Origin: Agelaius tricolor
Taxonomy: Eukaryota > Chordata > Aves > Passeriformes > Icteridae
Direction: 5' to 3'
Length of the DNA stretch: 64,000 nucleotides
Assembly: GCA_023055355.1 (NCBI GenBank)
Contig: JALJCS010000029.1
Location: 496,001-560,000 of the forward strand
Notes under the pieces: model-generated
What the model was told of the DNA's origin: nothing
The model's database searches: none
The model's input: the letters and a program-made list of their open reading frames with translations, nothing else
Position numbers and translations under genes: made by a program
Shown: piece by piece, positions 1 to 64,000 of the stretch
Position numbering within the stretch: position 1 is the stretch's first letter
Layout: each line of letters starts with the position of its first letter

Positions 1-2586
1 ATTTTGCCTTTCTTGACTGGCTTGTCTTTCTTTACTTCTAGAAGGTTACATGAGGTCCTCCAACCTTGTCATAAACATTCGCATACAGTGGAAAGGAGTA
101 GAAGGTACATCTAAATGCACAAAACAGACCCAGAAAAATAGAGTTTTTTTACAGTCTTCTGTGAGAACAAGATCTCTTTGAACTGAGTAATGCTTTAACT
201 TTTAGTCCACTCATTACTATTATTACAAGTGTTTGGCCTTTAGTACATAGCCTTTGAAATCATCCAGCCCAATATTTTTGGCTAATTTTTTTTTTATTTC
301 TCTCAGGGACTTTGTTTCTTAAGGAACAGTCCAGAGCAAAAGCGTCCACGGTAGAGTTATGCTGCCATAATAAAAGCGTCATAAATTCTGGTACAGTTTG
401 TGCTGGTAATAGGTCTAGGAAAGAAAGGTTTTACATCTTTTTTGACTTTCAAATGTAACCATTATTTGAAACAGTTAAGAGTTGGGCTTTCCCCCCCTCC
501 AAAATACTTCTCTCTGGAATGTTACTCAGGGATTACACATAAAAGCTCACCCCGTAAAATATGTTGTGGATAATCTGCAGTAAGCGCAGCTTAGCAGCTA
601 GAGATGATTATGTGGGTTAAATGACATTCCTTCTGCGGTGATGGAAACTCTGTCTACGCAGACATACTCAACAAAAGTTACCATGGCTTAGCTCCTCTCC
701 TAAACTTCATGTGCATTTTAAAACTTTCCAAGAAGGTGAATTCAAGCTCCTTCATTGCTCTGTGCTGGAGTCCCAAGAAAATATCAGTGTGCTTTTTGTC
801 CTTTACAGCTGTCATTGCTTAGCTCTTGAACATGAGACTCTCTCATGACTGATGAAAGTTGTCTAGTTAAGAGTGGGTCAAAGACACGCTCCTGCTCTAG
901 AAGGAGATGAGAAGGTTTCTGCAGTCTTTGTCATCTCTACTGCTTGTGATTTCTAGACAAAACCAGTGGGAAGTTTTCTGAAGGCAGTCCAGAAGCTGGC
1001 AATATGGACAGCTTACAACCAAACACTTGCTGCACTGCTACCACGGTGATACCAGGAAGGACTTAAAAAATTTAAACGGGCAAACAAAGCAGTTGGAAGG
1101 AAAAGAACATTAACCATTATTCCATGCTTCTAATATATCCTCCTTTAAGTCATCATTTTCCTGCAGTTTAACGGCTTGCCTTGGTATCCCTCAAAAGGAA
1201 ATCTGAGACAGAGTAAGCTTTTGAATGCAGTAGATGTGACACGTGCAGGCCAAGTTGCCTTTGTTGACATCAAATGCCAGTTATGCTTGAGCTACCCTTT
1301 GCTTAAGGTACTTCGCTTACACTAAGAATTTTACTCATCATTGAGCAAATTTTGCTGTCATGATTGAGTAAATTTTATTCATGATAGAGTGAATTTTACT
1401 GTCACTCAGAATTTTACTGTCATGATTGGCATGGAAACTTTTCAAGGAAAGCTCTGGATAGCAATGTTTGTGAAAAAACAGTATTTTATCTCCTGTATTT
1501 GTGTGAAGCAGGTAAGCCTTTTGCTGTCACCAGTGTTGCTTACCCTTTCATGTCATATCCCTCTTCATATCCATATTCTGCTGAAGGCTTATTAATCTAC
1601 TTTAAAATTGGCACGTGGAATAAGACTCCTTTTCCTTTTTGAAAGCTAATGTCATTTGACCTACTGACAGTAAATAATTCATTAATTGTAAGTCCCCAGC
1701 TAGCATCTTTTACGCATATTCTAACCTTCTAAAGAAGTAACAAAAACACTCTCCAATACTTTGCTTTCTTAAGCACACAAAATGCTTCCCTCCTTTGCAG
1801 TTGGCATTGTAAAATGAACCACATCTCTGCAGTATTTTAACGTGCACCATATTTAACCAAGTAATTCAAAAGAAATAAAAAGCAGCCCCTTCGATTTGGA
1901 AATATTTTTGAATTGTTTTTGAATATACAAAACATACCCTTACCGTACGCATTGCATGCAGATTTAATCGTCGTGAAAGCAAACCCTATGTTTCTGTTCG
2001 GATCGCAGGGTTTTCCAGTTTCCACAATTGTTCTTGGCACAGTTTTCTACTTATGTGACTGTTAGGACACTCACAGGTACTTCTAAGGTACTGTAGTAAG
2101 CGGAGAAGGAGGAGAGGTTGTGCCTTATTTCTGGCTTCCTTTGGTTTTCTTTTTGGTTTTCTTCCTCTTGCTCTTTTTCATGTCACCTTTCTAGATACTG
2201 TGATTTAGATTTGCAGTTTACTAAGCTGTGCTTTCTGTCTGGAATTCTTTGAAATTCCGAGAGGAACCCCACCGGTAAATATGCATCTTTTTATGATTTG
2301 CTAGCTACATAGAAAATCTTCCTGCTGCTCTAAAAGGCTTTTATTTGATATGCATTTTTATCACCATTCCAATGAAAAGTTCCTCTATTCACTGCTTTTG
2401 TACTGGATTCAGTTCAATGTGCGCTAACGGTGCAAAAAAGTCCTGCTGGAAGAAAGGATCTGCATACCAATTGACCAAGACACGGGCTACAAGGGTCTTG
2501 GAAAGGTTCAAAGTTTCTCTACCTTTCTGGCAGTCTGTCTTCACAGCAGGACTTGATGAGGGATTTTGCTGGCGTTTCTTTGACAG

Positions 2587-2640
2587 AAAGCAATAACAAA
2601 GCAAGCAAAATGGAGCAGCAGAAGAAGATAGCAGCAAAAG
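2587..2640 (+). other. Candidate exon A (weak)
   Basis: A 54-bp block lies between a pyrimidine-rich acceptor ending in ACAG (2583-2586) and a GTACAT donor at 2641. In one frame it is open, starts with 2 nt and ends with 1 nt, and contains an ATG at 2610 followed by a Gln/Lys-rich run. Its end phase matches candidate exon B at 3163-3348 on the same strand. An identical copy lies at 60661-60714. I do not recognise the product, and short splice-like blocks arise often by chance. Confidence 0.2.
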
Positions 2641-3162
2641 GTACATTATCCCCTCTGTTATTATCATTGTCGAAAGAGATTTTTTCTCGCCATGTTACAT
2701 CAAATACCTTAGTAGAGCTAAAGACTAGAAAAACGCAGCTCTGTTCTGGTTCATTAAAAGCAAAGCCATCTGTGGACAGAAGTGCCCAGCGTGATGCTGG
2801 GAACTCCTAGCTGGTTTCAGTAAGCTGTCTGGAGAACGGCATTTTCGGTGGGCTTTACTAGCGTGTCTGTAAGGAGGGGGAGTTTATGTGCAGCTTTGAG
2901 CCCTGAGAGTGCCATAGGCAAAGAGACCCATCGTGTAGCTCTCTGACCAGCCACAGCACGCTGAGGCATGATGGATTACTCCCAGAGTTCACGTGGTAGA
3001 AAGGTTTTCTGCCCCCGTGAAGGACGACACATCCATTTGCTTGAATAGAGCCATTCTGTATGTTACAATGGTAACTTGAATTCATCAAGTTTGTGCTATT
3101 TGTACAATGGCAGTGAGCTTGGATTCTTAAGCTTCTCGTGTTTGACCTGTTTCCTGTTTCAG

Positions 3163-3348
3163 TAAATAGCAAAACTTCCAAGGACTGCAGCGACAAGAAG
3201 ATGAAGCTGCTAGCGTATTTCAAATGTTTGCCTAATAAAATGGTGATTTTTGCACATATTCGCAATGGAAATTTACGGTACCGAAACACCAGCTCTGCTC
3301 AGGGCAATTCTGAAATTGACTTGAGCTCTTTCCCGTGTTTCTTAGCAG
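3163..3348 (+). other. Candidate exon B (weak)
   Basis: A 186-bp block (62 codons, phase 1 to phase 1) follows a good acceptor (pyrimidine tract ending TTTCAG at 3162) and precedes a GTGAAC donor at 3349. It is open in the frame set by candidate exon A; joining the two makes a continuous frame through a Val codon. The encoded peptide is basic and serine-rich with no domain I recognise. The other copy (61237-61422) differs at 3214, 3224 and 3256, and all three changes alter an amino acid (A to V, K to N, H to R). It could equally be non-coding. Confidence 0.22.
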
Positions 3349-4154
3349 GTGAACTGAGATACTTCTAGCTTCCAAGGCAAGGCCTTTGACAGCAGCTTCA
3401 AAAAGGCCCAGGCTGTTGGATGAAAAGGTGAAAAAACTGAGGGAAATGGGGGGAAATTTCACTTCTGGTTTATGTCATAGATTCAGCCAGATGATCAACA
3501 AGCATTAGTTTGATGAGGTACCAGCGCAGTCTTTCACTCTTGCAGATCCCCAAAAGCTTAACCATCCAGCAGCTTCTTCCTTGCAACAAGTGCCCCAGCC
3601 AAAAGCCAGGCCTGGCCGTCACCTTCTCCTCGCAGCCTACAAACTCTGCCAAACGTACCGGCGATTCTCACTTTCGTTCACAGCTACATGGACAAGCACA
3701 TCCTCTCCATGTCTCCGAGTCCTTAGTGAAACCAAACAGCGGTTCACCTTCAAACAGCTCAGTGTGCCAGGACAGAAAGATTTCACTGGCCTGTCCCCTT
3801 GCTTTTTCCTTGCAGCCTTTTATTTTCAGAGCATACACCGAGGCATTGCACTTTGCTTCTCAGCTGAATGCATTGCCACATTGCTGGAGTCCCACACGTC
3901 CATCTCCTTCTCGCACTAACTGCTTCTGTTGAAACATGCTGATGTGATGTGCTTTCCTGCTCAGCTATTAACACAGTCACATTCTATGTCCTGCTTGCAG
4001 TCTGAATCTAAAAGGAGACGTTTCTGACTATGTCTCACAGACACAGATGGACCAGGATGAAAAGGTTGCTTGGACCTTGCCACTTACGTTTGAAAACATC
4101 CATTCACTCCACAATCAAGAGACACCTTTCTTTGCTTTACATCCTGCAAACTTC

Positions 4155-4155
4155 A

Positions 4156-4189
<34 letters not shown>
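4155..4189. repeat. AC dinucleotide microsatellite
   Basis: This is a run of about 16 CA units. The copy at 62229-62263 is the same length but pure, because base 4157 T is A there. Confidence 0.95.
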
Positions 4190-4194
<5 letters not shown>

Positions 4195-4309
4195 GAGCTA
4201 CGCACTTTCTTTCTTTCTTTCTTAGCTGCACACACTCACCTATTTCCCACCTTGACCTCTCTACCACTTCTCCTTCGGCCTTGCTGTGCATGGATATTTC
4301 CTGTTAAGA

Positions 4310-5515
4310 TACCCATTGTGTTGCCTATCCCTCCCCCACATTGCCTTGCCTTTCCTACCCAATCTTGCATTTCCTTGTCATTGCTGACAATTCCTTTCTT
4401 TTCCCTTGCCTTCCTGACCCATGCATGTCCTTCCCTTGCCCTTCATACCAACCCAGTGCCTTGTATTGACTTGCTCACCTCTCCTTCTTTTCCTTCCCAT
4501 TTGTCCAGCTCCAATCTTTCATTTCCTTCTCCTTCTAGGACTCTTATTGCCTTGTCTCCCTCTCTTTTGTGTTGCCTGGCAAAGCCACCACTTGTCTGGC
4601 CTTGTCCTTGAACCCCTTCCTTGCCTTGCATTACCTTGCTCACCAGTCCCCCACCTGGAATTCACCACCTCTCTTTTTGTGGAATCTCTTCAACATGCAT
4701 TGCCCTGCCTGCTTCTCCTAGGATTCTCCAGGCTTCCACTGGCTATTTTTTCTCAAGGCCCAGCGTTTCAGGAGCTTGTGAGAAGAAGCCTGGAGGAGGC
4801 CACGTGCAAGCACACCTATCTGTCCTGACAGCTTTCTTCTGACATCTATCCTTCCATGTCTTGAATTTTGGACACAAACTTCATCTTTCACCCTTGGGCT
4901 TCAGGGGCAGAATGACAGTTCTTTTGCATACAAAGGAAAGCAGGCAACCCAAGTGTCTTAGGTGCAGATTAGACATGACCCATGCAAGATCAAGGCTGGA
5001 CAGAGCGGTCCGTCCGGGCCGCTTTTGTGTACCAGCAATCTTTGAATGGACCTGCCACTTGCCTTGCATTGGGCAACCAACCAGTTTCCTTGCCATGCCC
5101 TGCTCATTCTCCATTGCTTTGCATTCCCTTGCATACCCATGCCTCACATTTGACCTGCCTGCAGTTTTCCTACAGGGCTTGGCCTTGCCTAGCCCTTCTG
5201 GTTACCATTACCTCCTATGCCCAGCCTTGCCTCTAACTTCTGGCACTTGTCTCACCTACCACTCCATTTGCTTTCCCCTCACGGCTTCAGTCTTGCCAAC
5301 CTGTCCCTTGACTTGCCTACAATTGCCTACACTTGCTTTGCATTGCCTTACCTGCATGGAAGGCAAGGCAAAGAGTGGTAGACAAGGCAAAGCAAAGCCA
5401 GGAAGTTATTGGAAGGGCTAGGCAAGGCAGACATAGGCAAGCAAGCAAAGCTAGGGTAGGGTAGGCTAGGAAAACTAGGCATGGTACTGGAGGCAAGGCA
5501 AAGCCAAGTGACTTG
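4310..5515. repeat. Degenerate CCTTGCC-rich tract with strand switch
   Basis: From about 4310 to 5345 the plus strand is dominated by variants of CCTTGC, TTGCC and CATTGCC. From about 5356 to 5515 it is dominated by the complement, GGCAAGGCAAAG. The switch lies in 5346-5358. This is an eroded low-complexity or minisatellite-like array with an inverted end. It generates long spurious open frames on both strands, which I do not annotate as genes. It recurs at 62384-63589. Confidence 0.75.
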
Positions 5516-6903
5516 GAGTGCCTTTCCTTGCTTGGGAAATAAAAGATACGGTGGCAATGTTGGTAGGGCTGATGATAAGGTATCGTGGGAAGGTATAGTA
5601 CAGCAAGACATTTCTGTCCTGGTCCTTTCTGTGTAGGAGCCATTGTTGGACCGAGTCAGTACCGGACGTGGTATGCAACTTTTGCTCGGTAAGTTCCTGA
5701 AGGAGAACAGCAATGCTTTCTCATGGGAAGGAAAGAACTTAGCCCCAGTGTTGGAGGTGCAGATAAGAAGCTGTGTCGTGCAGCTTAAGGGCGGCAGCAA
5801 CTTTCTATGCTGGCATATTTGGTGTGGAAGCACTGACTCAATTTGTACAATCATGGAGTCGGTATCCATCTTTGGAAGGCAGTCTCCTTCCTGCAAGAAT
5901 CCATTTGGCATGTGTTTTCCACTTTCTCAAGGCAGCCTTCTTTAAATTCTGCCAGCACACTTCTTTTGGACAAGGTAAAGAGCTGCGCTGGGTCTTGGTG
6001 TGCAGCCTAGCTAGTGCCCCGCACAGGTAATGCCCAATAACAGTGGTCTGACACCTTTGTAGAGGATCAGGCCCTGGATGCTTTGGATTTTGGAGGAGGG
6101 GATGCCATTTCTTTTGAGATGGGCTTCCAGTTCCTCCTCCCTTTGGCAAAGTTTGGGTGGCCACTTTGGGTGGTCTCAGTGAATTGAAAGGCTTTTCCCA
6201 ATAGGCAGTTCTCTGGGTTCGAGTTGTTGAACTGTCAGTGGCAATGCAGAGGCCAGGCCAGGCCTCTGCAGGACAGGTTTTTGTCCCTTGTAGCTTTAGG
6301 GACTGTGTGAGCAGTCCCTGGTGCCATCCCATTTGGATCCTGACTCTGAGAGATTGAAGGCTTACGGTGGTACCTAGAGCTGAGAAGGAAAGTGGCGATA
6401 GCAGGGTGCACGTTTATAGTTTGATGGGTGCAATTGAAATTGTAGGCAGCAAAGAGCTTTCTCCACCAACAGTTTTGCGAGCTCGGCCAACATTTTCAAG
6501 TTTGTTACCAGGCTCTGTGAGAGAGAAAAAGTTTGTTAGGGCAGAAGATCTGGTGTCGGCCTTTGAGTGTGGGGCAAAGAAGAGTATCCACACGGAAGGG
6601 GAAGATCGGTGAAATCTGTTTGTCCTGACACAGTTGATTGGAGAGCAGGGACGTTTCTGACTTGGCTGGGTCCTGGGGGTGGTTGTGAGCTGGGCTCGGT
6701 GCGTGTCCTGGTTTTGTGAGTTGACAATGCTGTGGTGTGGTTATTTAGAAGAGCGCTGACAGTGCCCAGGAAAAAGACAAGCACTTTTCTAGCCCAGCCC
6801 CGTTCGTGTGGGAGCAGTGTAGGGACAAGAGCTCCGCTGTGGATCCTGGCTCTCGGGTACTGACAGAATGGGATCCTGCATGTAGCCCAGAAGGAAGAAG
6901 AAT
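5516..6903. other. No recognised feature
   Basis: Apart from the left duplication copy ending at 5926 for lack of window, I see only short open frames without recognisable domains, no RNA gene and no clear mobile-element ends. Confidence 0.5.
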
Positions 6904-7315
6904 TGTCGTGAACGGCGGGAGAAATGCGACACACCATATGCGTGAATGGCAAATCCCAAAGTTTATTGAAAACTCACACATATTTATATTGGTGTTAATG
7001 AAGCTTATACATATTGCAAAAGCTGAGTTCATTATTGGTTAAAGCACACTTGGATCAACCACACCTACTTCTATCTTCTAATAATTATTTTGCTTCTATG
7101 TTTGCATTCTTCCAGCTTCTCTACCTAAGATATCTACATTTTCTGGCAAGCGATTTTCTCCCCCGTCTTCCCGTTTCAGAGAAGGTCACTGTGACCTTTG
7201 TCAGCGATTGGACACTGGTTGCTTAGTTCCCAGCTTGTATCCCCTATCCTTATCCATCGGTATCACATCGAAATGTCCTTTCTCAGCTAACCAATTATCC
7301 AAAAAGCTCTCTACA
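6904..7315 (-). mobile_element. Solo LTR, ERVK/ERV2-like, with 6-bp TSD
   Basis: The element is 412 bp, begins TGTAGA and ends ACGACA when read on the minus strand, and is flanked by the perfect 6-bp direct repeat AAGAAT (6898-6903 and 7316-7321). On the minus strand it has a TATA-like AATATAAATATG and an AATAAA signal about 70 bp before its 3' end, in the expected U3-R order. The 6-bp target duplication fits ERV2/ERVK-type integrases. No internal sequence is adjacent, so it is a solo LTR. Confidence 0.88.
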
Positions 7316-7321
7316 AAGAAT

Positions 7322-9621
7322 CATTGCATTGTTGGCTGCACAGTTTAGAAGCTTCAAAATAAAAGGCAATTGCAGCATGGCCTCTTCATTTTAGAAAGTT
7401 TTCTGGGCCATCAGCTGCTCAACATGTAACTTGCACCCACTGAACTGCATTCAGCTTCCTGGAGATATGCACTTTCCCTCAAGATCTAGGTACCATCTTG
7501 CACTCGAACGCTTGAAGATCCCAAACCGCTTCAAAATGTCCAGCGGCTGCTCTCAAAGAAAAAGTCCTACAACAAAAAGGCAGTGCTGGCCATAACGGTC
7601 CCTTTGCAGTCTGTCAACCAAACGAAACATACTAGCGATTCTCACGTACTTTCTCAATGATACATATACGTGCATCAGCACATTCTCTCAAAGTGACAGA
7701 GACTATCGCTACAGCCAAGCGTTTTCAGCTGCACTTCTGACTGACAGATGTGCCAGGACAGAAGGCATTTGCCAACCTACCCTCTTTCCTGTGCAACCTG
7801 ACATTGGCAGCGCAAATATTTTCACATTCTTTCATTGTGGCCATGTCCAAAGCAGCTAAAGATCACACAGGTGGAAGTGTCAAGACAGAAGATGTTCTCA
7901 AAGTAACTCCTTTTTTTTCTAAACAGCTTTTAAACTGCGCACAACGCTTTGTATCTTCTTTCCCACATAGACCTGCCCTCACTTTTTCACACTCACATCT
8001 TTGTTGCAAACATCCAGCAGATGTTTGCGTAGAAAAAGGCTCTAGAAATAAAAGCGAGACTTGGGCTGCACCTTCTGCCTGCCCTGTGTAAGCCACATCA
8101 AGCTCACCAGTGCGCTCTGTCCTTCCCTTTTCCGCTGCAACTACCATTGTGTTCTCTGGATCTCGGAACCTAAAGGTAGGCACATTGGTTTCCACAGAAG
8201 GGCCATAGGTAGCGGCACAAATAGCTTTCACTGAACTTTAATCCTTACCACTGCCACCATGAGTTTGGTTGGTAGGCCAGTAGGAGTCATGCTCCTTTTA
8301 CAGCTGGTATGCGGCAGCCACCAGCCCAGTGCTCTTCGACTCTTGTAACCAATCCTGCTTTTACTCTCCCGGAGGGGATTAGGCATCTGTTTCTCACACA
8401 GATCATTGTGGCAGCAGCCAACGGCTCTAGTGCGCTGCTTCTGCCAAAAGACACTGGGGCCAGGCACTTACCTTCTCAGCACTACGTAGCCCCGTATTCT
8501 GCGTCTCTTGTCGTCCAGATCATACCGCAAAGCGTTTCACAGAGAAAAAATGTGCCAGGACAACAGCTTGGCTGAAGTGTACCCCTGAAACTGGTGGAAG
8601 TTTGTATTTGCACCACATTCAAGGGGCAGTCCTCTTTCCTATACAACCTGCAAACTGCTGTCTGTTCCCAGTGCCCTCTGCCCGCTCCTTCTTACCTTGA
8701 AGTACCATGCCAAAGAGGGCTCTGTGCTGAGGTCTCAGAAGAAGAGGGAAGCAGATGTGTTTGTAAAGTGGACTGTCTGTTAGTCACTTCCCTCTTCAAA
8801 GCAGCGTGTTCCATGCCAAGCAGACAACAAAGCAACAAAAGATGAGTGTGACTCTGCAGTCAAATCCTGCAATGTTCCCAGAAGTGAATTTCTCTCTTCT
8901 AGAGGACTGACTTGTATGAAGTGGCGTGGTTGTTTCCTTCCATTAGAAGGGCAACTCATCTAGCCAGGCTTCATCACCCCCTGCATCTTTTGGGGTAGTT
9001 CTTGGAAGAAAATAGATAGCAACTTTTCCACTCCACATGATTCATGTTTCATTCTCTTCCTTCTGTACTTCAGGGAACAAGCTATCAATTCCCTACTCTT
9101 TCTATGAAAAGGCATGAAGCTATTAGTTAAATTCCCATAGATATAATAAGGAATCAAAGTCTTTTATGCCTGAAGGGCAGGCCCTTATGGTATGAAAAGT
9201 ATGGATTGTCAAGGGTGGAAGAAGATCTGTATGAAAAGGGAGAAAGCCCAGAAGCATGCAGGGATTTTCAGGTATGAAAGGGAAAACGACATTAAATTGT
9301 CAAGGGAAAGAAATTGAAAGAGGCAGGAGGGAGAAGGGAGGCGGAGGAGGCAAATGCTGCCTTTGAGGCAGCTGACACAAGGACCGTCGGCCTCATGAGC
9401 AAACAAGAAAACCAAATGAAACTTCACAGCAATCTCATCCACAACTTAGTGGACAAATGCGCAAACCCATTTCTTCATTTATTATGTGTCTAATATATAG
9501 AGAGATGTTCTTCATTCTGACAGAATTTTCAGGGAGCAAGCTAGTGTAAGGCACCTGGAACCAATGGTGTATTGGAAATGGCCAACATGCAGAACACGCT
9601 CCATCCTGAACGCTACCACAG
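7322..9621. other. No recognised gene; degenerate repeat traces
   Basis: The stretch has no convincing gene. Around 7515-7800 and 8475-8660 there are motifs resembling 3545-4150, such as a shared TGTGCCAGGACA core at about 7748 and 8551 versus 3767. This suggests old diverged duplicates. Confidence 0.4.
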
Positions 9622-10006
9622 CAGAATCACAGGATCATAGAATGGCTGGGGTAGACAAAGACCTTAAAGGCCATCTAGTTCTCTGACATGGGCGGGGACA
9701 CCTTTTACTTGCTCAGGTTGCTCAGAGCCCCATCCAGCCTGGCCTTGAACACCAGGTTGGGGTGTCCATAACTTCTCCAGGCTCTCTGTGCCAGTGCTTC
9801 ACCACCCTCACAGGGAAGAATTTCTTCCGAGTATCTAATTTCAACCTGCCCTCTTTCATTTTGAAGCCATTGCCCATTGTCCTGTCTCCAGAGTTGCTAA
9901 TGAAGAGTCCCTCTCCTGCTTCCCTTCAGATATTGGAAGGTGTTGTGAGGTCTCCATGCAACCTTCTCTTCACCAGGCTAAACAGCCCTAACTCTCTCAG
10001 CCTGTG
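9622..10006 (-). mobile_element. CR1 LINE fragment, 3' end
   Basis: The start reads as the reverse complement of a CR1 3' tail (ATTCTATGAT-type end), followed by the typical 3' UTR and end of ORF2 in reverse orientation. It is 5'-truncated, as nearly all CR1 copies are. The solo LTR at 10007 inserted at or near its 5' edge. Confidence 0.88.
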
Positions 10007-48325: not shown

Positions 48326-48357
<32 letters not shown>

Positions 48358-48440
48358 TCCCCCACTTCCTTCCTTCACTGCCTTCCTTCCATTATGTCCT
48401 TCTTTCTGCCAAGTCCTTCTGCCACTTCCTTCCCTCCCTC
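48221..48440. repeat. TTTC-rich polypyrimidine microsatellite
   Basis: About 140 bp of near-pure TTTC (48221-48359) is followed by CCTTC-rich sequence to 48440. It gives spurious Phe/Leu- or Lys/Glu-rich frames on either strand. Confidence 0.95.
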
Positions 48441-52300: not shown

Positions 52301-54175
52301 AAAGGCGAAGATGCAAACCGCACCACGCAGGCACAGTGTGGGCAGCATCCAGACTTCGAGAAAACAGTATTTTACCACTCTCCTGCCTTTTCCATTGTTA
52401 TTAAATTCGAAAGGAACGAGTTCTGCACAACTATCTTTTCCGTATTGCAAAACTCTTTTCAGACCTCTGTACAAGCTTTAGAACATGATTTTGGATGTTT
52501 TATTTACTGGCAGTGTTTCTCTTTGCAAGGTATGGTGAAAAAGCTTTTTGCTGAGTGTTGAGCGGCAAGAAACGCAGAAGACGCAGATACGGAGCTCTCC
52601 GAAACTAAGTGCGGGTCCACGGCTTCTTTGGGCACAAGCCGCTCTTAGGTGCTCACTGCGACCGACCCAATGCTCTGTGTGCGAAGAAGCCGCTTCTTCG
52701 CCTCCGGGAGACGGATAGTGCGGCAGCTTCCCGAAAGCGAAGATGCTAGTCGCACCACACAGCAACAGTGTGGGCAGCATTCAGACTTCGAGAAAACAGT
52801 GCTTTACTACTCTCCTGCCTTTTCCATTGTTATTATATTCGAAAGGAACGAGTTCTGCACAACTATCTTTTCCGTATTGCAAAACTCTTTTCAGACCTCT
52901 GTACAAGCTTTAGAACATGATTTTGGATGTTTTATTTACTGGCAGTGTTTCTCTTTGCAAGATATGGTGAAAAAGCTTTTTGCTGATTGTTGAGCGGCAA
53001 GACCCGCAGAAGACGCAGATACGCAGCTCTCCGAAGCTAAGTGCCGGTCCACGGCTTCTTTCGGCACAAGGCGCTCTTCGAAAAGCACTGCGACCCAAAC
53101 AATGCTCTGTGCGCAAAGAAGCCGATTCTTCGCCTCCGGGAGACGGAGAGTGCGGCATCTTCCCAATGGCGAAGATGCTAGTCGCACCACACAGCAACAG
53201 TGTGGGCAGCATCCAGACTTAGAGAAAACAGTATTTTACCACTCTCCTGCCTTTTCCATTGTTCTTATATTCGAAAGGAACGAGTTCTGCACAACTATCT
53301 TTTCCGTATTGCAAAACTCTTTTCAGACCTCTGTACAAGCTTTAGAACATGATTTTGGATGTTTTATTTACTGGCAGTGTTTCTCTTTGCAAGGTATGGT
53401 GAAAAAGCTTATTGCTGAGTGTTGAGCGGCAAGACACGCAGAAGACGCAGATACGGAGCTCTCCGAAACTAAGTGCGGGTCCACGGCTTCTTTCGGCACA
53501 AACCGCTCTCAGGAGCTCCCTGCGCTCGGCACAATGTTGTGGGCAAAGAAGCCGCTTCTTCGCCTCCGGGAGACTCGGCGAGCGGCAGCTTCCCAAAGGC
53601 GAAGATGCAAACCGCACCACGCAGGCACATTGTGGGCAGCATCCAGACTTAGAGAAAACAGTATTTTACCACTCTCCTGCCTTTTCCATTGTTATTATAT
53701 TCGAAAGGAACGAGTTCTGCACAACTATCTTTTCCGTATTGCAAAACTCTTTTCAGACCTCTGTACAAGCTTTAGAACATGATTTTGGATGTTTTATTTA
53801 CTGGCAGTGTTTCTCTTTGCAAGATATGGTGAAAAAGCTTTTTGCTGAGTGTTGAGCGGCAAGACACGCAGAAGACGCAGATACGGAGCTCTCCGAAGCT
53901 AAGTGCCGGTCCCCGGCTTCTTTCGGCACAAGCCGCGCTTAGGTGCTCACCGCGACGCAAACAATGCTCTGTGTGCGAAGAAGCCGCTTCTTCGCCTCCG
54001 GGAGACTCGGCTAGCAGCAGCTTCCGAAACGCGAAAAACAAATATTAACACCACCGCCATTGTGTCCCGGGCGTCTTTCGGCACAAGCGCCGCACCGGAG
54101 CGTACCGCCCCTGGCACAATGCTCTGTGCGCGAAGAACTCGATTCTTCGCATCCCGGGATCTGAAAGAAGAAGCA
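49368..54175. repeat. Tandem satellite, about 11 units of 431-433 bp
   Basis: The block AAGCTTTTTGCT marks successive units near 49524, 49955, 50382, 50815, 51247, 51680, 52114, 52542, 52973, 53406 (with one change) and 53838. Each unit has an AT-rich half and a GC-rich half containing a dyad with 9-bp arms GCGAAGAAG and CTTCTTCGC around CCG, near-perfect in most units. First units (49368-50250) and the last fragment (54055-54175) are more diverged than the centre. Unit length is not a multiple of three in general, so the many 80-240-codon frames on both strands are by-products. Confidence 0.95.
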
Positions 54176-54179
54176 TAAG

Positions 54180-54703
54180 CTTTAGACGCCCTTGCCTCAA
54201 TTGTGTACAGGTTTGGGCGCTCCTCTCGATTAATTGTGCCATTCCTGACAGCAGGTGTCGCTGTTGGTCAAGCTTTGAGTATGCTTAAGACGTTGCGATG
54301 CTGGGTGGTCAACTCAAGGTAAGATCAGCGACTTTAAATCAGGTTCTCACTGGTGTAGATACCATTAGTCATTGCACACTGCAAAATAAAGCTGCTCTAG
54401 CTTTCTTGTTAGCACATGGGCAAGAGTGTGAGGATTTTGAAGGAATGTGTTTTTTGAACCTCTCTAACCCTTCTGCAGTCATTCACTGGAAACTCAAACA
54501 AAGCCAAGATAACATGAAGAAATTGATTGGGAATGAGAGGGTTACGCATGAATGGTTTGAGAGATGGGAAACAACTCGATGGTTGGAAGATCTTGTCAAG
54601 GGAACTTTGTTGTTACTAGTAGTCATTATTATATTGCTTCTTGTTATTCCATGCATCATGAAACTGGTGAGCCTCTTGGAAGTAAATACAGTGAAAAGGG
54701 TTT
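54180..54703 (+). pseudogene. env: env transmembrane fragment of a second retrovirus
   Basis: A hydrophobic fusion-peptide-like stretch at about 54225-54285 is followed, after a frame shift, by a 135-codon frame from 54298. It carries an immunosuppressive-domain-like region (residues 28-43) and a Cys-X6-Cys pair (C44 and C51) with Phe where gamma- and alpharetroviral envelopes usually have a third Cys. A membrane anchor is at about residues 101-124. The fragment is 5'-truncated at the satellite, so no surface subunit is present. It differs from the env at 37701-41120. Confidence 0.82.
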
Positions 54704-54716
54704 AGCTGGTGCAAGA

Positions 54717-54731
54717 CAAAGAAGGGGGAAA
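54717..54731 (+). promoter_or_regulatory. Polypurine tract
   Basis: The purine run AAAGAAGGGGGAAAT directly precedes the LTR at 54733. This is where plus-strand DNA synthesis would start. Confidence 0.8.
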
Positions 54732-54732
54732 T

Positions 54733-55119
54733 TGTAGCAATGTAGCTGAACCTCTTAGACTAAAGGGTGCACCAGCCATCCAGCTGGAATATGTTCTTCT
54801 CAGAATTTTCTCAGAGCCCTCTGGAATTCATCAAGGTTACTAAGACATAAGCCGTGCTAAAAGAAGAAAGAGAAGTTGAGAAACCAAATTCCAAGACTAC
54901 AAGAACTCGATAACGGGGGGCAGCAAAGCGCCTGGACTGTAACCAAACGTATCTTCTGAGAGGTACACACAGAATGTGTGGACATAACAAAGGCACCAAG
55001 ATAAAAATGCGGGCCTAGCGTGTGCAGAGATTTAGAATGTGTAAGTGCATCATGTCAACAATCAACGGCTTCTGCTTAATCCTCTCGCTCCGTTGTCCTG
55101 GAGTGCTGAATTTCCCACA
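54733..55119 (+). repeat. 3' LTR of the second retrovirus fragment
   Basis: The start TGTAGCAATG is set by the polypurine tract. A likely end is CCCACA at 55119, giving 387 bp; a TATA-like AGATAAAAATG lies at about 54999. The 5' LTR is missing from the window. Confidence 0.6.
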
Positions 55120-58074
55120 AGGAAAGCCCTACTAAAAGGGCTCTGATTTTAATGATAGTTGCTGTCTAGACGATGAATAATGGGACTAGTTCTTTCAAAT
55201 CCTTCCCTCGCTGACATCTGTAAGTTTCATCTTTTCCTGATTGTACTGGTGGCTATACATCAGTTATGACTAGAAAGGAATGAGTTTTAGGGATATGTGG
55301 CAAGGAAATTGGTAGCTCTGCTTCCATTTCCATTGTCTAAGAAGAATTCTGGTTAGTTTTGGACTTTTCATAGACCTCTGACTAGATTGCATTTGTCTTT
55401 GATTGAGCCTGTAAATTTTAGGCTACTAGGCTTGACCAATGAATAGAAAAGGGAAAGTCACACAGCTTAGGTGGTTCTCTTGTCAACAACTTCTCAATAG
55501 TAGGGCGATTTCTGTCCTCAAGTTTGTTACTTCAGCTAGCAGATTATGCTCACTCCAAAAGAAGGTGAGAAGTTTGCTACCCTAAATGGTCCGAGAATTC
55601 TGCCTGCTTCTTTGTGACTCTTTTGTATGACTGGGTTCTGTATTATTGGAGTTTGTTATAAAAAGTTGGATTAAATTGCGTGCGTCCGCTCTTGGGGGAA
55701 ACAGTATTTAGCCAATAACATCTAGGCTTTTATCGACCTGAGACTGTCTGAACGGACCGGACACTTTAAACACAGTAATTCCTGCTAGTTCCAATTCCAT
55801 TTTTAGACTCGACAAACCGAATGGTAAACCTGCACCAGTAGGGAGGGACATTGGACTTTCTCCTTTTTAGAGAGAAACTAATGAAAAAGTTTCAGCAGAA
55901 TCATAGCAGGCTGTAAAATAAGAAAAGCATCATGAAAAGAGGCCAATCCTATCCTCTTAGATATGGCTAGTTGTGATTGGACATGAATGAAATATGTCAA
56001 CTCTGTGTTCCTGGGTATCACATCAGTAACAGCTACTTCAGCTGCTGTAGTTGTCTCCTAAAGCTAAGAACAGAATCCAAAGAATTGTGATTCCATGGTC
56101 CCAATTCACCCTGTGATGGTGACAGGTGAAAAAGGAGTGGAAGGTGCACGGGGAAATTAACTTGAATGGCCTATCTAAATCAGCAGCCACTGATTTCCTG
56201 AAAACTTCAACAGGTCAGTTGACCTGTTGGGATTCTTTTAATCCATGGTCATGTTTTTCTTGGGATTCTTGTAACCTTTCCCCATTCGTTCAGCCTTTGC
56301 CCTCAAGCCTTTGCTGACATTTCAAGTATCTCGACAAGCTGGAAATGTGTTGTCTTTCTTTATCATGTCATAATTCCCTTCAAAGGCTTGTTTGCCTCAA
56401 GTCTTATTTTTGCTGGTTTTCTGCTAGTTCATTGTCAGAGGGCAGCAGGTGCTTTGTAAGAGCAAGTACACAATCCTATAGCTTGCTTTTCTTTTGATTT
56501 GGCCTGTCTAGAAAACTGAATGACTGAACATTTCCAACAGAATTTTCTCTCCCCATTATGTTTCACCGGAAGGGCAGATGCAAATCATCTACTTAAACTC
56601 TTGGCACGGAAGAAAATAGTGGTTTGCTGCTGCATATAGGTAGAAGCTTACAAAAGGAAGGCCTTGGGCTGAGGCCCGATACTTTGGCTAAGTAGAAAAG
56701 GACTATGGGAAGGTGAGGCCGCTGAATCAGAGGTAGATCAACAAGTTCTAGAATGGTCACGTGTTCACGGCGTGGTGTATGATGGTTGGTTGAATGAATT
56801 TTGTTATGGCTTAAAGCTGTGGAACTGATAAAGGCTTGAGTGCTTCAAAAGCCTGGTTTTTGCAAAAAAGCAGCTCTCCTCTGCACCTGCCTGGGGACTC
56901 TGCATCACTAGGGACCCTCACTCCCAGTTTGCCAAGGAGATGATCAGTAGGAATGTTGCAGAGCTGCTGTGTCCATATGAACGGAATGGCAAAGAGTGAA
57001 GCGGTGGGTATTTTTGGGCTTTAATACAATGCTGCTGCATTGGTGCCAGTTTAGTCGGTTTTCCATCAGTGGCCTTTCTGTCTAGAAGTACACTGCCCAG
57101 AGTCTTTCTAGCATGTGATGCCATTTCCTTCCTGTTGTTTTAATACCTTCCTTCAGTTGAAAGGATGATACAATCTTTACATTTTGAAGATCCCTATTAG
57201 GAAACACTATGCCAGAGGAGTCATTGCTCCCTTTTCTTCTGCCTCCTTTGTAATTTTCAGAGACTCATTTCAAATTTCTGCTAATGTCGAGAAAAATACT
57301 GAGACTACTCAGCAGGGTTGAGGCTCTCAGCTGCTTTCCTCTTTCATACTGCTTCATACTGTATGTGACTTAATGGCCTGGTTTTGTCATCCGCATTTTG
57401 CTGTGATCTGTGAACACAAAAAGAAGTCTTTGTTTTTTGCAAGAACTACCCCTAGGAGGATTTGTGTTCATTTTGATTTCTACGGTGTTAGCCCTGTTGC
57501 AGAAAAAAAGGAGATTGTACCCTCTTCTTGTGCTCTCATTCCCTCCTCTCTGCTTTGCATGTCCTAGTTAATCTACTGCCATGACTCATTTGGCATCATC
57601 TCATAGTGCAAATTCTGCACAGTTGCATGGACTTACAAATGCCAGTTGCCAAGGAGCTAATATAACCATTCAAAGATTAAAGAATTGTAGGGCTGGGCAA
57701 GTTCAGCTGCTGAAACTGTAAGTGGTTAAGTCATGCCATATTAAAGAGACAGAGCAAAGCAGTTCATCTAGGACTTTGAACTGGACACCTCCGAGAATAA
57801 CAGCTTGACAGCAATGACACAGCCATCTTCCTAGCTGTATTCCAGAAAGAGGAAAGGGACACCTTCAATGGTTAAGATGTTTGGCATGAGAAAACAGCAA
57901 GAAATGTAGCCCAAAATACTTGAGCCAGATAAAGTGCGTTTTTCTCGTGAGAATTTTGCAGTTGTTCTTTCTTGTCTGTGCCTTTACTTTTCACAGAAGA
58001 CAGGGAGGGCGTTCAATTATTATTGTTCTTTTGTTTTCTATTCTTGGCCTCCCTCTTTCCACCTGCCATTAACA
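55120..58074. other. No recognised gene up to the second duplication copy
   Basis: I see only short open frames and no repeat ends. This part also represents the sequence that would precede base 1 if the 58-kb period is tandem. Confidence 0.5.
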
Positions 58075-61000
58075 ATTTTGCCTTTCTTGACTGGCTTGTC
58101 TTTCTTTACTTCTAGAAGGTTACATGAGGTCCTCCAACCTTGTCATAAACATTCGCATACAGTGGAAAGGAGTAGAAGGTACATCTAAATGCACAAAACA
58201 GACCCAGAAAAATAGAGTTTTTTTACAGTCTTCTGTGAGAACAAGATCTCTTTGAACTGAGTAATGCTTTAACTTTTAGTCCACTCATTACTATTATTAC
58301 AAGTGTTTGGCCTTTAGTACATAGCCTTTGAAATCATCCAGCCCAATATTTTTGGCTAATTTTTTTTTTATTTCTCTCAGGGACTTTGTTTCTTAAGGAA
58401 CAGTCCAGAGCAAAAGCGTCCACGGTAGAGTTATGCTGCCATAATAAAAGCGTCATAAATTCTGGTACAGTTTGTGCTGGTAATAGGTCTAGGAAAGAAA
58501 GGTTTTACATCTTTTTTGACTTTCAAATGTAACCATTATTTGAAACAGTTAAGAGTTGGGCTTTCCCCCCCTCCAAAATACTTCTCTCTGGAATGTTACT
58601 CAGGGATTACACATAAAAGCTCACCCCGTAAAATATGTTGTGGATAATCTGCAGTAAGCGCAGCTTAGCAGCTAGAGATGATTATGTGGGTTAAATGACA
58701 TTCCTTCTGCGGTGATGGAAACTCTGTCTACGCAGACATACTCAACAAAAGTTACCATGGCTTAGCTCCTCTCCTAAACTTCATGTGCATTTTAAAACTT
58801 TCCAAGAAGGTGAATTCAAGCTCCTTCATTGCTCTGTGCTGGAGTCCCAAGAAAATATCAGTGTGCTTTTTGTCCTTTACAGCTGTCATTGCTTAGCTCT
58901 TGAACATGAGACTCTCTCATGACTGATGAAAGTTGTCTAGTTAAGAGTGGGTCAAAGACACGCTCCTGCTCTAGAAGGAGATGAGAAGGTTTCTGCAGTC
59001 TTTGTCATCTCTACTGCTTGTGATTTCTAGACAAAACCAGTGGGAAGTTTTCTGAAGGCAGTCCAGAAGCTGGCAATATGGACAGCTTACAACCAAACAC
59101 TTGCTGCACTGCTACCACGGTGATACCAGGAAGGACTTAAAAAATTTAAACGGGCAAACAAAGCAGTTGGAAGGAAAAGAACATTAACCATTATTCCATG
59201 CTTCTAATATATCCTCCTTTAAGTCATCATTTTCCTGCAGTTTAACGGCTTGCCTTGGTATCCCTCAAAAGGAAATCTGAGACAGAGTAAGCTTTTGAAT
59301 GCAGTAGATGTGACACGTGCAGGCCAAGTTGCCTTTGTTGACATCAAATGCCAGTTATGCTTGAGCTACCCTTTGCTTAAGGTACTTCGCTTACACTAAG
59401 AATTTTACTCATCATTGAGCAAATTTTGCTGTCATGATTGAGTAAATTTTATTCATGATAGAGTGAATTTTACTGTCACTCAGAATTTTACTGTCATGAT
59501 TGGCATGGAAACTTTTCAAGGAAAGCTCTGGATAGCAATGTTTGTGAAAAAACAGTATTTTATCTCCTGTATTTGTGTGAAGCAGGTAAGCCTTTTGCTG
59601 TCACCAGTGTTGCTTACCCTTTCATGTCATATCCCTCTTCATATCCATATTCTGCTGAAGGCTTATTAATCTACTTTAAAATTGGCACGTGGAATAAGAC
59701 TCCTTTTCCTTTTTGAAAGCTAATGTCATTTGACCTACTGACAGTAAATAATTCATTAATTGTAAGTCCCCAGCTAGCATCTTTTACGCATATTCTAACC
59801 TTCTAAAGAAGTAACAAAAACACTCTCCAATACTTTGCTTTCTTAAGCACACAAAATGCTTCCCTCCTTTGCAGTTGGCATTGTAAAATGAACCACATCT
59901 CTGCAGTATTTTAACGTGCACCATATTTAACCAAGTAATTCAAAAGAAATAAAAAGCAGCCCCTTCGATTTGGAAATATTTTTGAATTGTTTTTGAATAT
60001 ACAAAACATACCCTTACTGTACGCATTGCATGCAGATTTAATCGTCGTGAAAGCAAACCCTATGTTTCTGTTCGGATCGCAGGGTTTTCCAGTTTCCACA
60101 ATTGTTCTTGGCACAGTTTTCTACTTATGTGACTGTTAGGACACTCACAGGTACTTCTAAGGTACTGTAGTAAGCGGAGAAGGAGGAGAGGTTGTGCCTT
60201 ATTTCTGGCTTCCTTTGGTTTTCTTTTTGGTTTTCTTCCTCTTGCTCTTTTTCATGTCACCTTTCTAGATACTGTGATTTAGATTTGCAGTTTACTAAGC
60301 TGTGCTTTCTGTCTGGAATTCTTTGAAATTCCGAGAGGAACCCCACCGGTAAATATGCATCTTTTTATGATTTGCTAGCTACATAGAAAATCTTCCTGCT
60401 GCTCTAAAATGCTTTTATTTGATATGCATTTTTATCACCATTCCAATGAAAAGTTCCTCTATTCACTGCTTTTGTACTGGATTCAGTTCAATGTGCGCTA
60501 ACGGTGCAAAAAAGTCCTGCTGGAAGAAAGGATCTGCATACCAATTGACCAAGACACGGGCTACAAGGGTCTTGGAAAGGTTCAAAGTTTCTCTACCTTT
60601 CTGGCAGTCTGTCTTCACAGCAGGACTTGATGAGGGATTTTGCTGGCGTTTCTTTGACAGAAAGCAATAACAAAGCAAGCAAAATGGAGCAGCAGAAGAA
60701 GATAGCAGCAAAAGGTACATTATCCCCTCTGTTATTATCATTGTCGAAAGAGATTTTTTCTCGCCATGTTACATCAAATACCTTAGTAGAGCTAAAGACT
60801 AGAAAAACGCAGCTCTGTTCTGGTTCATTAAAAGCAAAGCCATCTGTGGACAGAAGTGCCCAGCGTGATGCTGGGAACTCCTAGCTGGTTTCAGTAAGCT
60901 GTCTGGAGAACGGCATTTTCGGTGGGCTTTACTAGTGTGTCTGTAAGGAGGGGGAGTTTATGTGCAGCTTTGAGCCCTGAGAGTGCCATAGGCAAAGAGA

Positions 61001-62225
61001 CCCATCGTGTAGCTCTCTGACCAGCCACAGCACGCTGAGGCATGATGGATTACTCCCAGAGTTCACGTGGTAGAAAGGTTTTCTGCCCCCGTGAAGGACG
61101 ACACATCCATTTGCTTGAATAGAGCCATTCTGTATGTTACAATGGTAACTTGAATTCATCAAGTTTGTGCTATTTGTACAATGGCAGTGAGCTTGGATTC
61201 TTAAGCTTCTCGTGTTTGACCTGTTTCCTGTTTCAGTAAATAGCAAAACTTCCAAGGACTGCAGCGACAAGAAGATGAAGCTGCTAGTGTATTTCAACTG
61301 TTTGCCTAATAAAATGGTGATTTTTGCACGTATTCGCAATGGAAATTTACGGTACCGAAACACCAGCTCTGCTCAGGGCAATTCTGAAATTGACTTGAGC
61401 TCTTTCCCGTGTTTCTTAGCAGGTGAACTGAGATACTTCTAGCTTCCAAGGCAAGGCGTTTGACAGCAGCTTCAAAAAGGCCCAGGCTGTTGGATGAAAA
61501 GGTGAAAAAACTGAGGGAAATGGGGGGAAATTTCACTTCTGGTTTATGTCATAGATTCAGCCAGATGATCAACAAGCATTAGTTTGATGAGGTACCAGCG
61601 CAGTCTTTCACTCTTGCAGATCCCCAAAAGCTTAACCATCCAGCAGCTTCTTCCTTGCAACAAGTGCCACAGCCAAAAGCCAGGCCTGGCCGTCACCTTC
61701 TCCTCGCAGCCTACAAACTCTGCCAAACGTACCGGCGATTCTCACTTTCGTTCTCAGCTACATGGACAAGCACATCCTCTCCATGTCTCCGAGTCCTTAG
61801 TGAAACCAAACAGCGGTTCACCTTCAAACAGCTCAGTGTGCCAGGACAGAAAGATTTCACTGGCCTGTCCCCTTGCTTTTTCCTTGCAGCCTTTTATTTT
61901 CAGAGCATACACCGAGGCATTGCACTTTGCTTCTCAGCTGAATGCATTGCCACATTGCTGGAGTCCCACACGTCCATCTCCTTCTCGCACTAACTGCTTC
62001 TGTTGAAACATGCTGATGTGATGTGCTTTCCTGCTCAGCTATTAACACAGTCACATTCTATGTCCTGCTTGCAGTCTGAATCTAAAAGGAGACGTTTCTG
62101 ACTATGTCTCACAGACACAGATGGACCAGGATGAAAAGGTTGCTTGGACCTTGCCACTTACGTTCGAAAACATCCATTCACTCCACAATCAAGAGACACC
62201 TTTCTTTGCTTTACATCCTGCAAAC

Positions 62226-62268
<43 letters not shown>

Positions 62269-64000
62269 GAGCTACGCACTTTCTTTCTTTCTTTCTTAGC
62301 TGCACACACTCACCTATTTCCCACCTTGACCTCTCTACCACTTCTCCTTCGGCCTTGCTGTGCATGGACATTTCCTGTTAAGATACCCATTGTGTTGCCT
62401 ATCCCTCCCCCACATTGCCTTGCCTTTCCTACCCAATCTTGCATTTCCTTGTCATTGCTGACAATTCCTTTCTTTTCCCTTGCCTTCCTGACCCATGCAT
62501 GTCCTTCCCTTGCCCTTCATACCAACCCAGTGCCTTGTATTGACTTGCTCACCTATCCTTCTTTTCCTTCCCATTTGTCCAGCTCCAATCTTTCATTTCC
62601 TTCTCCTTCTAGGACTCTTATTGCCTTGTCTCCCTCTCTTTTGTGTTGCCTGGCAAAGCCACCACTTGTCTGGCCTTGTCCTTGAACCCCTTCCTTGCCT
62701 TGCATTACCTTGCTCACCAGTCCCCCACCTGGAATTCACCACCTCTCTTTTTGTGGAATCTCTTCAACATGCATTGCCCTGCCTGCTTCTCCTAGGATTC
62801 TCCAGGCTTCCACTGGCTATTTTTTCTCAAGGCCCAGCGTTTCAGGAGCTTGTGAGAAGAAGCCTGGAGGAGGCCACGTGCAAGCACACCTATCTGTCCT
62901 GACAGCTTTCTTCTGACATCTATCCTTCCATGTCTTGAATTTTGGACACAAACTTCATCTTTCACCCTTGGGCTTCAGGGGCAGAATGACAGTTCTTTTG
63001 CATACAAAGGAAAGCAGGCAACCCAAGTGTCTTAGGTGCAGATTAGACATGACCCATGCAAGATCAAGGCTGGACAGAGCGGTCCGTCCGGGCCGCTTTT
63101 GTGTACCAGCAATCTTTGAATGGACCTGCCACTTGCCTTGCATTGGGCAACCAACCAGTTTCCTTGCCATGCCCTGCTCATTCTCCATTGCTTTGCATTC
63201 CCTTGCATACCCATGCCTCACATTTGACCTGCCTGCAGTTTTCCTACAGGGCTTGGCCTTGCCTAGCCCTTCTGGTTACCATTACCTCCTATGCCCAGCC
63301 TTGCCTCTAACTTCTGGCACTTGTCTCACCTACCACTCCATTTGCTTTCCCCTCACGGCTTCAGTCTTGCCAACCTGTCCCTTGACTTGCCTACAATTGC
63401 CTACACTTGCTTTGCATTGCCTTACCTGCATGGAAGGCAAGGCAAAGAGTGGTAGACAAGGCAAAGCAAAGCCAGGAAGTTATTGGAAGGGCTAGGCAAG
63501 GCAGACATAGGCAAGCAAGCAAAGCTAGGGTAGGGTAGGCTAGGAAAACTAGGCATGGTACTGGAGGCAAGGCAAAGCCAAGTGACTTGGAGTGCCTTTC
63601 CTTGCTTGGGAAATAAAAGATACGGTGGCAATGTTGGTAGGGCTGATGATAAGGTATCGTGGGAAGGTATAGTACAGCAAGACATTTCTGTCCTGGTCCT
63701 TTCTGTGTAGGAGCCATTGTTGGACCGAGTCAGTACCGGACGTGGTATGCAACTTTTGCTCGGTAAGTTCCTGAAGGAGAACAGCAATGCTTTCTCATGG
63801 GAAGGAAAGAACTTAGCCCCAGTGTTGGAGGTGCAGATAAGAAGCTGTGTCGTGCAGCTTAAGGGCGGCAGCAACTTTCTATGCTGGCATATTTGGTGTG
63901 GAAGCACTGACTCAATTTGTACAATCATGGAGTCGGTATCCATCTTTGGAAGGCAGTCTCCTTCCTGCAAGAATCCATTTGGCATGTGTTTTCCACTTTC
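58075..64000. repeat. Right copy of the long duplicated segment
   Basis: This is the direct-orientation second copy of bases 1-5926. Everything described for 1-5926 (exon-like blocks, AC microsatellite, CCTTGCC-rich tract) recurs here at plus 58,074. The copy is not marked by a repeat, TSD or junction motif at 58075; homology begins there only because the window begins at base 1 of the other copy. Confidence 0.97.

What the first reader, a model, noticed from the sequence alone, without database searches (positions are those of the whole stretch)
1..64000. 58,074-bp direct repeat spanning the window
Bases 1-5926 and 58075-64000 match at one constant offset with 13 substitutions and no net indel. 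The simplest model is a tandem amplicon of about 58 kb carrying a provirus and a satellite, as in ampliconic sex-linked or germline-restricted sequence. A two-copy segmental duplication would also fit.
Basis: partly seen in the sequence, partly recalled or inferred. Interest (0 to 1): 0.8.

Follow-up and report, generated by a model that had tools for sequence, protein, structure and literature searches.

The report
Provirus-carrying 58-kb subtelomeric tandem repeat
The repeat seen at the two ends of the window is one step of a long run of nearly identical 58,000-base blocks, each carrying an old broken retrovirus, and such runs lie near the ends of many chromosome pieces in what looks like a bird genome.

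Summary
In detail: bases 1-5926 and 58075-64000 match at offset 58,074 with 13 substitutions and no indel. It is not a two-copy duplication. The window lies 496-560 kb into an 8.83-Mb contig of an unnamed 1.16-Gb, bird-like assembly, inside a head-to-tail array of at least 15 units. A non-proviral 45-mer of the unit has 231 matches genome-wide, roughly 13 Mb at 58 kb each. The 100 listed lie within about 1.25 Mb of a contig end, unit pointing inward. Two of eight sampled array-side ends carry telomere repeats. Outside the C29 array lies a 41-kb block whose marker matches 33 contigs, none at both ends. Inside it, a sampled stretch is single-copy. The window unit holds an old provirus (LTRs 4.4% apart) and a 432-bp satellite; one neighbouring unit has a solo LTR with a clean 5'-to-3' switch. 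No host protein domain passed its cut-off in the parts scanned. Best reading: a subtelomeric macrosatellite spread and homogenised by exchange between non-homologous chromosome ends. The sex-linked or germline-restricted reading is not supported.

The parts
1..58074 (+). one complete unit of the macrosatellite in the frame set by the window (window base 1 is an arbitrary phase); corresponds to G000:C29:496001-554074
58075..64000 (+). first 5926 bp of the next unit, 13 substitutions from bases 1-5926
29775..42502 (+). old provirus from 5' LTR start (TGTGAAAG) to 3' LTR end (GTGACA), flanked by ATACG / ATACC, a possible 5-bp target duplication with one mismatch
29775..32057 (+). 5' LTR in two pieces (29775-30596 and 31864-32057) interrupted by a 1267-bp insertion (30597-31863)
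   Evidence: matches in units C and D of C29 show a gap of the same size
41517..42502 (+). 3' LTR (986 bp), 43 differences from the 5' LTR over 981 aligned positions (4.38%)
35558..36034 (+). pol fragment, RT_RNaseH_2 (1.6e-10), open stretch of a broken frame
36091..36903 (+). pol fragment, RNase_H (4.6e-14)
36925..37548 (+). pol fragment, integrase core rve (2.5e-9)
40021..40648 (-). LTR-like repeat nested in the provirus interior (relatives at 12907-13464 and 28141-28497); unit homology of the C29 array starts at unit position 40648, at the array's contig-end side
49495..54035 (.). 432-bp satellite, 10.5 copies here; 6.9, 6.9 and 11.6 copies in three other C29 units
54289..54702 (+). retroviral env transmembrane fragment (TLV_coat 1.7e-5)

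Best explanation
The window is one period of a subtelomeric macrosatellite. SHOWN: the unit of about 58 kb is repeated head to tail at least 15 times in the first 0.9 Mb of contig C29. Nearly all listed copies lie near contig ends, with the unit's plus strand running from the end inward. On C29 the array is bounded outside by a 41-kb block that many other contig ends share and inside, before 880 kb, by single-copy DNA. The C29 units compared differ by 0.2-0.8% in substitutions, by satellite copy number, and by full provirus or solo LTR. INFERRED: a segment that already carried a provirus reached a chromosome end and was amplified by unequal crossing-over or break-induced replication. It was then passed between non-homologous ends by exchange of whole terminal segments, which would explain the constant orientation and the shared flank. 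Crossing-over and gene conversion keep the units alike. LTR-LTR recombination and satellite copy-number change make the length variants. The unit most likely has no protein product; any role would be as terminal heterochromatin or as a homology substrate between chromosome ends.
For: Copies and place: (26 scored of 430 candidate matches to 1-5926, on C16, C17, C20, C28, C29, C31, C33 and C65); 79 matches to a 44-mer, 76 of them less than 1 Mb from a contig end in the expected orientation; 231 matches to a non-proviral 45-mer; 100 of the 100 listed in the expected orientation; 293 matches to a pol 45-mer; 100 of the 100 listed likewise. Contig lengths. Telomere repeats at the array-side end of C28 and C20. 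Shared flank: (59 matches on 33 contigs, 55 of them within 0.66 Mb of a contig end in one orientation); one 300-bp sample of C17 and two of C28 are identical to the C29 block. Inner edge: the 45 bases at C29:880001 occur once in the assembly. Homogenisation: (0.28-0.40% among three neighbouring units, 0.75-0.82% to the window unit; all three conflicting site patterns, 31/16/14). Provirus older than the divergence of the sampled units: 5' and 3' LTR differ by 4.38% in the window unit and 4.21% in unit C, and by 4.18-4.38% in all nine 5'-by-3' comparisons, while corresponding LTRs differ by 0.2-1.0%. Solo LTR of unit B: of 73 diagnostic columns the first 15 are as the 5' LTR and the other 58 (many in gap runs) as the 3' LTR. 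Satellite copy number.
Against: No reads were available, so unit numbers rest on the assembly. Only 2 of 8 sampled array-side contig ends show telomere repeats (C28, C20); C29, C33 and C65 stop in the block, C31 in the unit, C16 and C17 in other sequence. Three of 79 matches do not fit: C21:13.79 Mb (near the end but opposite orientation), and C8:22.79 Mb and C21:7.60 Mb (interior). Listings stop at 100 rows, so the places of 193 and 131 matches were not seen. Block and unit do not coincide fully: of the 18 unit contigs 14 have a block match and C30, C31, C63 and C80 have none; 19 contigs have the block without a listed unit match. Four of 59 block matches are inside C34 on both strands. Only C29 units were compared base by base at length, so exchange BETWEEN chromosomes rests on shared flank, orientation and near-identity, not on a tree. 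The outer junction was read on C29 only; on C17 it is bracketed by positions.
Confidence: 0.82

Rival explanations
1. The arrays are not general subtelomeres but the short-arm (centromere-side) ends of acrocentric chromosomes, comparable with the exchanging short arms of human acrocentrics.
For: In each of the 33 contigs matched, the shared block is at one end only (probability 1.2e-9 if every contig were a whole chromosome). C29 has the block at its left end and telomere repeats without a block match at its right end; C16 the reverse. Ancestral avian chromosomes were likely all acrocentric (PMC9974502, passages).
Against: Many of the 33 contigs may be chromosome pieces with only one natural end. 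No centromeric satellite was identified, and the sampled DNA just inside the C29 array is single-copy.
Confidence: 0.35
2. Sex-linked (Z/W) or germline-restricted ampliconic sequence.
For: Large tandem amplicons with proviruses are typical of such chromosomes (recalled).
Against: Near-end copies on 18 contigs, on C29 beside single-copy DNA; none of the listed matches on C4 with the DM-domain trio. W not tested.
Confidence: 0.03
3. Assembly artefact: one unit copied many times by the assembler.
For: Near-identical 58-kb units are hard to assemble; no reads could be checked.
Against: Sampled units carry private substitutions, different satellite copy numbers, full or solo-LTR provirus and, on C31, an LTR-like insertion at unit position 4574; spacings of the position-601 pattern vary from 21.8 to 121 kb (the largest probably span units that lack the pattern).
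Confidence: 0.05
4. A gene amplicon: the unit is kept for a transcribed or protein-coding element, like the testis-expressed amplicons reported in chicken pericentromeric heterochromatin (PMC9974502, passages).
For: Arrays are large and homogeneous; short exons could escape a Pfam scan. Two hits below the curated cut-off were seen in open frames: PANTS-like in the satellite and SKA1 at 32568-33026 in the provirus.
Against: Scans of 1-12902, 13500-28201 and 42503-49371 in six frames and of 54706-58074 in four gave no domain at E 0.01; all domains over their cut-off in the unit are retroviral.
Confidence: 0.08

Closest known systems
Subterminal heterochromatic caps of chimpanzee, bonobo, gorilla and siamang (PMC12058530, passages)
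   Same: Chromosome-end location on many chromosomes; a segmental-duplication unit captured and hyperexpanded (spacers of 32 kb in Pan, 34 kb in gorilla, 57 kb in siamang), associated with a satellite; implicated in exchange between ends.
   Different: There a short satellite makes up most of the cap and the spacer recurs every few hundred kb; here the duplicated segment is the tandem unit itself and the satellite is about 4.5 of 58 kb.
Subtelomeric interchromosomal segmental duplications of birds and mammals (PMC13431229, abstract and passages)
   Same: The paper reports that bird subtelomeres are biased towards interchromosomal duplication.
   Different: Here the duplicated segment also forms long tandem arrays with a shared outer flank; the passages seen do not describe such a unit.
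Subtelomeric tandem repeat of chicken and Japanese quail (PMC4301066, search listing)
   Same: Avian subtelomeric tandem repeat.
   Different: A short repeat (PO41, about 41 bp, recalled); not compared by sequence.
Human D4Z4 and other macrosatellites (search listings)
   Same: Large-unit tandem array near a chromosome end.
   Different: D4Z4 unit 3.3 kb with the DUX4 retrogene on two chromosomes (size and places recalled); here 58 kb, no host gene found, on many ends.
Large tandem repeat arrays of the hooded crow (Weissensteiner 2017, PMC5411765, not held)
   Same: Bird genome, long arrays of large units.
   Different: Unit of about 14 kb as I recall; could not be compared by sequence.
Yeast Y' elements (PMC13177704, search listing)
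   Same: Subtelomeric repeated element shared between chromosome ends.
   Different: Shorter, gene-bearing element (recalled).

Membership tests
Macrosatellite array | head-to-tail tandem repetition of a unit larger than 1 kb | tested here: met
   C29: 15 matches of one unit position, spacings 44.7-74.5 kb, all plus strand; succession of units over C29:41013-200000
Macrosatellite array | copy number differs between individuals | not testable with these tools
   one assembly only
Subtelomeric interchromosomal segmental duplication | copies on several chromosomes next to telomeres | tested here: met
   18 contigs with near-end copies; telomere repeats at 2 of 8 sampled array-side ends, C28 and C20; the others by distance to the contig end only
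Subtelomeric interchromosomal segmental duplication | same orientation relative to the chromosome end | tested here: met
   76 of 79; 100 of 100 listed of 293; 100 of 100 listed of 231
Ape-type subterminal heterochromatic cap | cap mostly made of a short satellite, with spacers at long intervals | tested here: not met
   satellite 4.5 kb of a 58-kb unit
Ape-type subterminal heterochromatic cap | hypomethylated spacer in hypermethylated satellite; late replication | not testable with these tools
   no methylation or replication data
Sex-linked ampliconic sequence | confined to a sex chromosome | tested here: not met
   near-end copies on 18 contigs; none listed on C4, which bears the DM trio; W not identified
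Germline-restricted chromosome sequence | absent from somatic DNA | not testable with these tools
   no tissue data
Two-copy segmental duplication | exactly two copies | tested here: not met
   231 matches, 15 of them on C29

The most novel reading that the evidence does not exclude
Tens of chromosomes of this bird carry, at one end only, the same terminal domain: telomere, a roughly 41-kb block and, on many of them, a run of 58-kb provirus-bearing units. This domain behaves as a pseudo-homologous region through which non-homologous chromosomes exchange ends and keep each other's sequence alike. It would be a bird counterpart of the human acrocentric short arms, assembled independently around a captured provirus.
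Probability: 0.35. Interest if true: 0.75.

Novelty: new variant of a known kind. Interest (0 to 1): 0.58.

Why it matters
[quoted passage not shown] A 58-kb unit matched some 230-290 times, about 1.2% of the assembly, near many ends in one orientation gives a marked system for measuring exchange between non-homologous chromosome ends. The full or solo-LTR provirus, the satellite copy number and the private substitutions are natural tags. It also asks why a chromosome would carry the domain on one arm only.

Tried and rejected
Rejected: a two-copy duplication; spread by new provirus insertion, since the whole 58 kb including non-viral DNA is repeated and corresponding LTRs are 0.2-1.0% apart while 5' and 3' LTRs are 4.2-4.4% apart; a known structural RNA or tRNA repeat (none found; ARAGORN used the bacterial code). 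A megablast of 1-5926 against phage records gave no match, as expected for such a genome.

Led nowhere: Pfam scans for a host gene in the unit (the only non-retroviral hits, PANTS-like and SKA1, are below their cut-offs) and in ten open frames of the outer block (six without a hit, three with retroviral domains, one with a sub-threshold hit DUF7553); passages of PMC7341801 and PMC7757076, which name crow tandem arrays but give no unit to compare. One search was badly set (one term of three sufficed) and told nothing. The unit-end pattern did not complete and was dropped.

Not seen: rows beyond the first 100; the inner structure of the 21.76-kb sub-array on C33; the interior copies on C8 and C21; lengths of C15, C18, C30 and of the block contigs with low-coordinate matches other than C12, C28, C29, C34 and C65. 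Some of those contigs may be short, so that a place near their start says little. Not scanned for domains: 12903-13499, 28202-29774, two frames of 54706-58074, the provirus interior outside seven open frames, and the satellite outside four open frames.
Full report
Observation. At offset 58,074 bases 1-5926 and 58075-64000 differ at 13 of 5926 positions, without indels. All 13 differences lie in 1944-4481, a span that chance would give with probability about 3e-4 (tested after it was seen). Across eight C29 copies the variable sites form a patchwork: of the ten differences between the two window copies in 3214-4481, the first copy shares nine with the copy at C29:218097. A stretch of the first copy thus looks as if it came from another unit lineage.

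Where the window lies. The window is G000:C29:496001-560000 of an unnamed assembly of 1,157,526,801 bases in 214 contigs; C29 is 8,827,500 bp long. The genome is bird-like by size, by small chromosome-scale contigs, by CR1-like and songbird-like LTR sequence (recalled), and by a cluster of three DM-domain loci on C4 among five in all. The species could not be named.

It is an array. BLAST of C29:1-200000 against the window unit gives about 41 kb of mostly other DNA, then units in succession: a partial unit A (41013-56764), B (56765-101455), C (101456-159572) and D onwards. A 45-mer from unit position 20501 occurs 15 times on C29 between 77 and 856 kb, on the plus strand each time, at spacings of 44.7-74.5 kb. 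A sampled 300 bp at C29:880001 has no match to the unit or the outer block, and its first 45 bases occur once in the assembly. The array therefore ends before 880 kb and meets DNA that is single-copy where sampled.

It is near many contig ends. The same 45-mer has 231 matches in the assembly at up to 3 mismatches, 100 of them listed. A 45-mer in the pol region has 293, 100 listed. A 44-mer at position 601 has 79, all listed. The listed matches name 18 contigs with near-end copies: C12, C14, C15, C16, C17, C18, C20, C25, C28, C29, C30, C31, C33, C40, C42, C63, C65 and C80. Lengths were looked up for all but C15, C18 and C30. Copies near a contig start are on the plus strand and copies near a contig end on the minus strand: 76 of 79 (less than 1 Mb from the end), and 100 of 100 listed in each (within about 1.25 Mb). 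The three exceptions are C21:13.79 Mb (near the end, reversed) and the interior copies on C8 and C21 with 3 mismatches. C14, C25, C40 and C42 have several to many units by the later patterns but no match at position 601, so there are subfamilies. At 58 kb each, 231 units are about 13.4 Mb or 1.2% of the assembly (rough, since unit lengths vary).

The outer flank. Of eight array-side contig ends sampled, C28 and C20 carry telomere repeats; C29, C33 and C65 stop in the block described next, C31 in the unit, and C16 and C17 in other sequence. Between the contig end and the array on C29 lies a 41-kb block with a divergent 191-bp satellite at 2326-6617 and retroviral pieces. A 44-mer of this block has 59 matches on 33 contigs. 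Of these, 55 are within 0.66 Mb of a contig end in one orientation, and four are inside C34 on both strands. The ten matches at high coordinates whose contigs were looked up lie 10-40 kb from the contig end. No contig has a match at both ends. If every contig were a whole chromosome this would have probability 1.2e-9, but many contigs are probably pieces. C29 and C16 show it directly, each with the block at one end and telomere repeats without a block match at the other. One 300-base sample on C17 and two on C28 are identical to the C29 block. Block and unit overlap but do not coincide: 14 of the 18 unit contigs have a block match (not C30, C31, C63, C80), and 19 contigs have the block without a listed unit match. 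On part of the contigs with 2-mismatch matches (C1, C5, C34, C72, C106) the block pattern recurs, mostly at 20-23 kb spacing, a second subtelomeric tandem family.

Anatomy of the unit. From base 1: DNA with dispersed repeats and no domain found, to 29.7 kb; the provirus at 29775-42502; 6.9 kb of further DNA; a 432-bp satellite at 49495-54035; an env fragment at 54289-54702; and 3.4 kb to the end. Pol survives as separate open stretches with RNase H and integrase domains; its frames are broken. Scans with X at each stop of 1-12902, 13500-28201 and 42503-49371 in six frames, and of 54706-58074 in four, gave no Pfam domain at E 0.01. Two hits in open frames, PANTS-like in the satellite and SKA1 at 32568-33026, are below their curated cut-offs.

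How the units change. The 5' and 3' LTR differ by 4.38% in the window unit and 4.21% in unit C, whereas corresponding LTRs in different C29 units differ by 0.2-1.0%. The provirus was therefore in the segment before the sampled units diverged. Unit B, 44.7 kb long, has a single LTR in which the first 15 of 73 diagnostic columns are those of the 5' LTR and the other 58, many of them in gap runs, those of the 3' LTR. This is the mark of LTR-LTR recombination that removed the interior. Three other C29 spacings of 45.3-46.4 kb fit the same form but were not read. The satellite has 6.9, 6.9, 11.6 and 10.5 copies in units A, B, C and the window. Units B, C and D differ by 0.28-0.40% over 29.7 kb and from the window unit by 0.75-0.82%; sites uniting two units against two support all three groupings (31, 16 and 14), as expected under recombination or conversion.

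Interpretation. Constant orientation, a shared outer flank and single-copy DNA inside (on C29) are what exchange of whole terminal segments between ends would give, followed by unequal crossing-over and conversion within arrays. Whether the domain marks the short arm of acrocentrics or a general subtelomere is open. The resemblance to ape subterminal caps, where a spacer duplication was captured and hyperexpanded (PMC12058530, passages), is one of working, not of membership, since there a short satellite dominates. Birds are reported to have an interchromosomal bias of subtelomeric duplications (PMC13431229, abstract and passages), so the kind is known; this unit is a large and unusual variant.

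Noticed in passing
G000: C1, C5, C34, C72, C106: A second subtelomeric tandem family: the outer-block pattern (2-3 mismatches) recurs mostly at 20-23 kb spacing, for example eight copies on C34:57-211 kb.
   Followed up: no
G000:C33:6829731-6916809: Four successive spacings of 21.75-21.76 kb in the unit pattern: probably a shortened unit that was itself amplified.
   Followed up: no
G000:C25:11.56-12.70 Mb: Spacings 56363, 58084 recur as 56367, 58087 among 20 units, a hint of multi-unit duplication.
   Followed up: no
L062 (G000:C31:7122017-7122916): The unit on C31 breaks off at unit position 4574 against sequence that I read as an env tail and an LTR, perhaps a younger insertion into the array.
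   Followed up: partly
G000:C8:22785732 and G000:C21:7603644: Interior copies with the same three differences in the 44-mer; possible relatives of the source locus.
   Followed up: no
G000:C34:1.19-2.21 Mb: Four outer-block matches inside a 6.79-Mb contig on both strands.
   Followed up: no
window 30597-31863: A 1267-bp insertion in the 5' LTR, containing a piece similar to 28441-28597; units C and D of C29 have a gap of the same size there.
   Followed up: partly
L009 (G000:C29:2326-6617): A divergent 191-bp satellite (72% matches) in the outer block; its period recalls a zebra finch centromeric repeat (recalled, not tested).
   Followed up: no
L051, L054, L055: The stretches read at the first 200 bases of C17, C20 and C31, the ends opposite their arrays, show N.
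   Followed up: no
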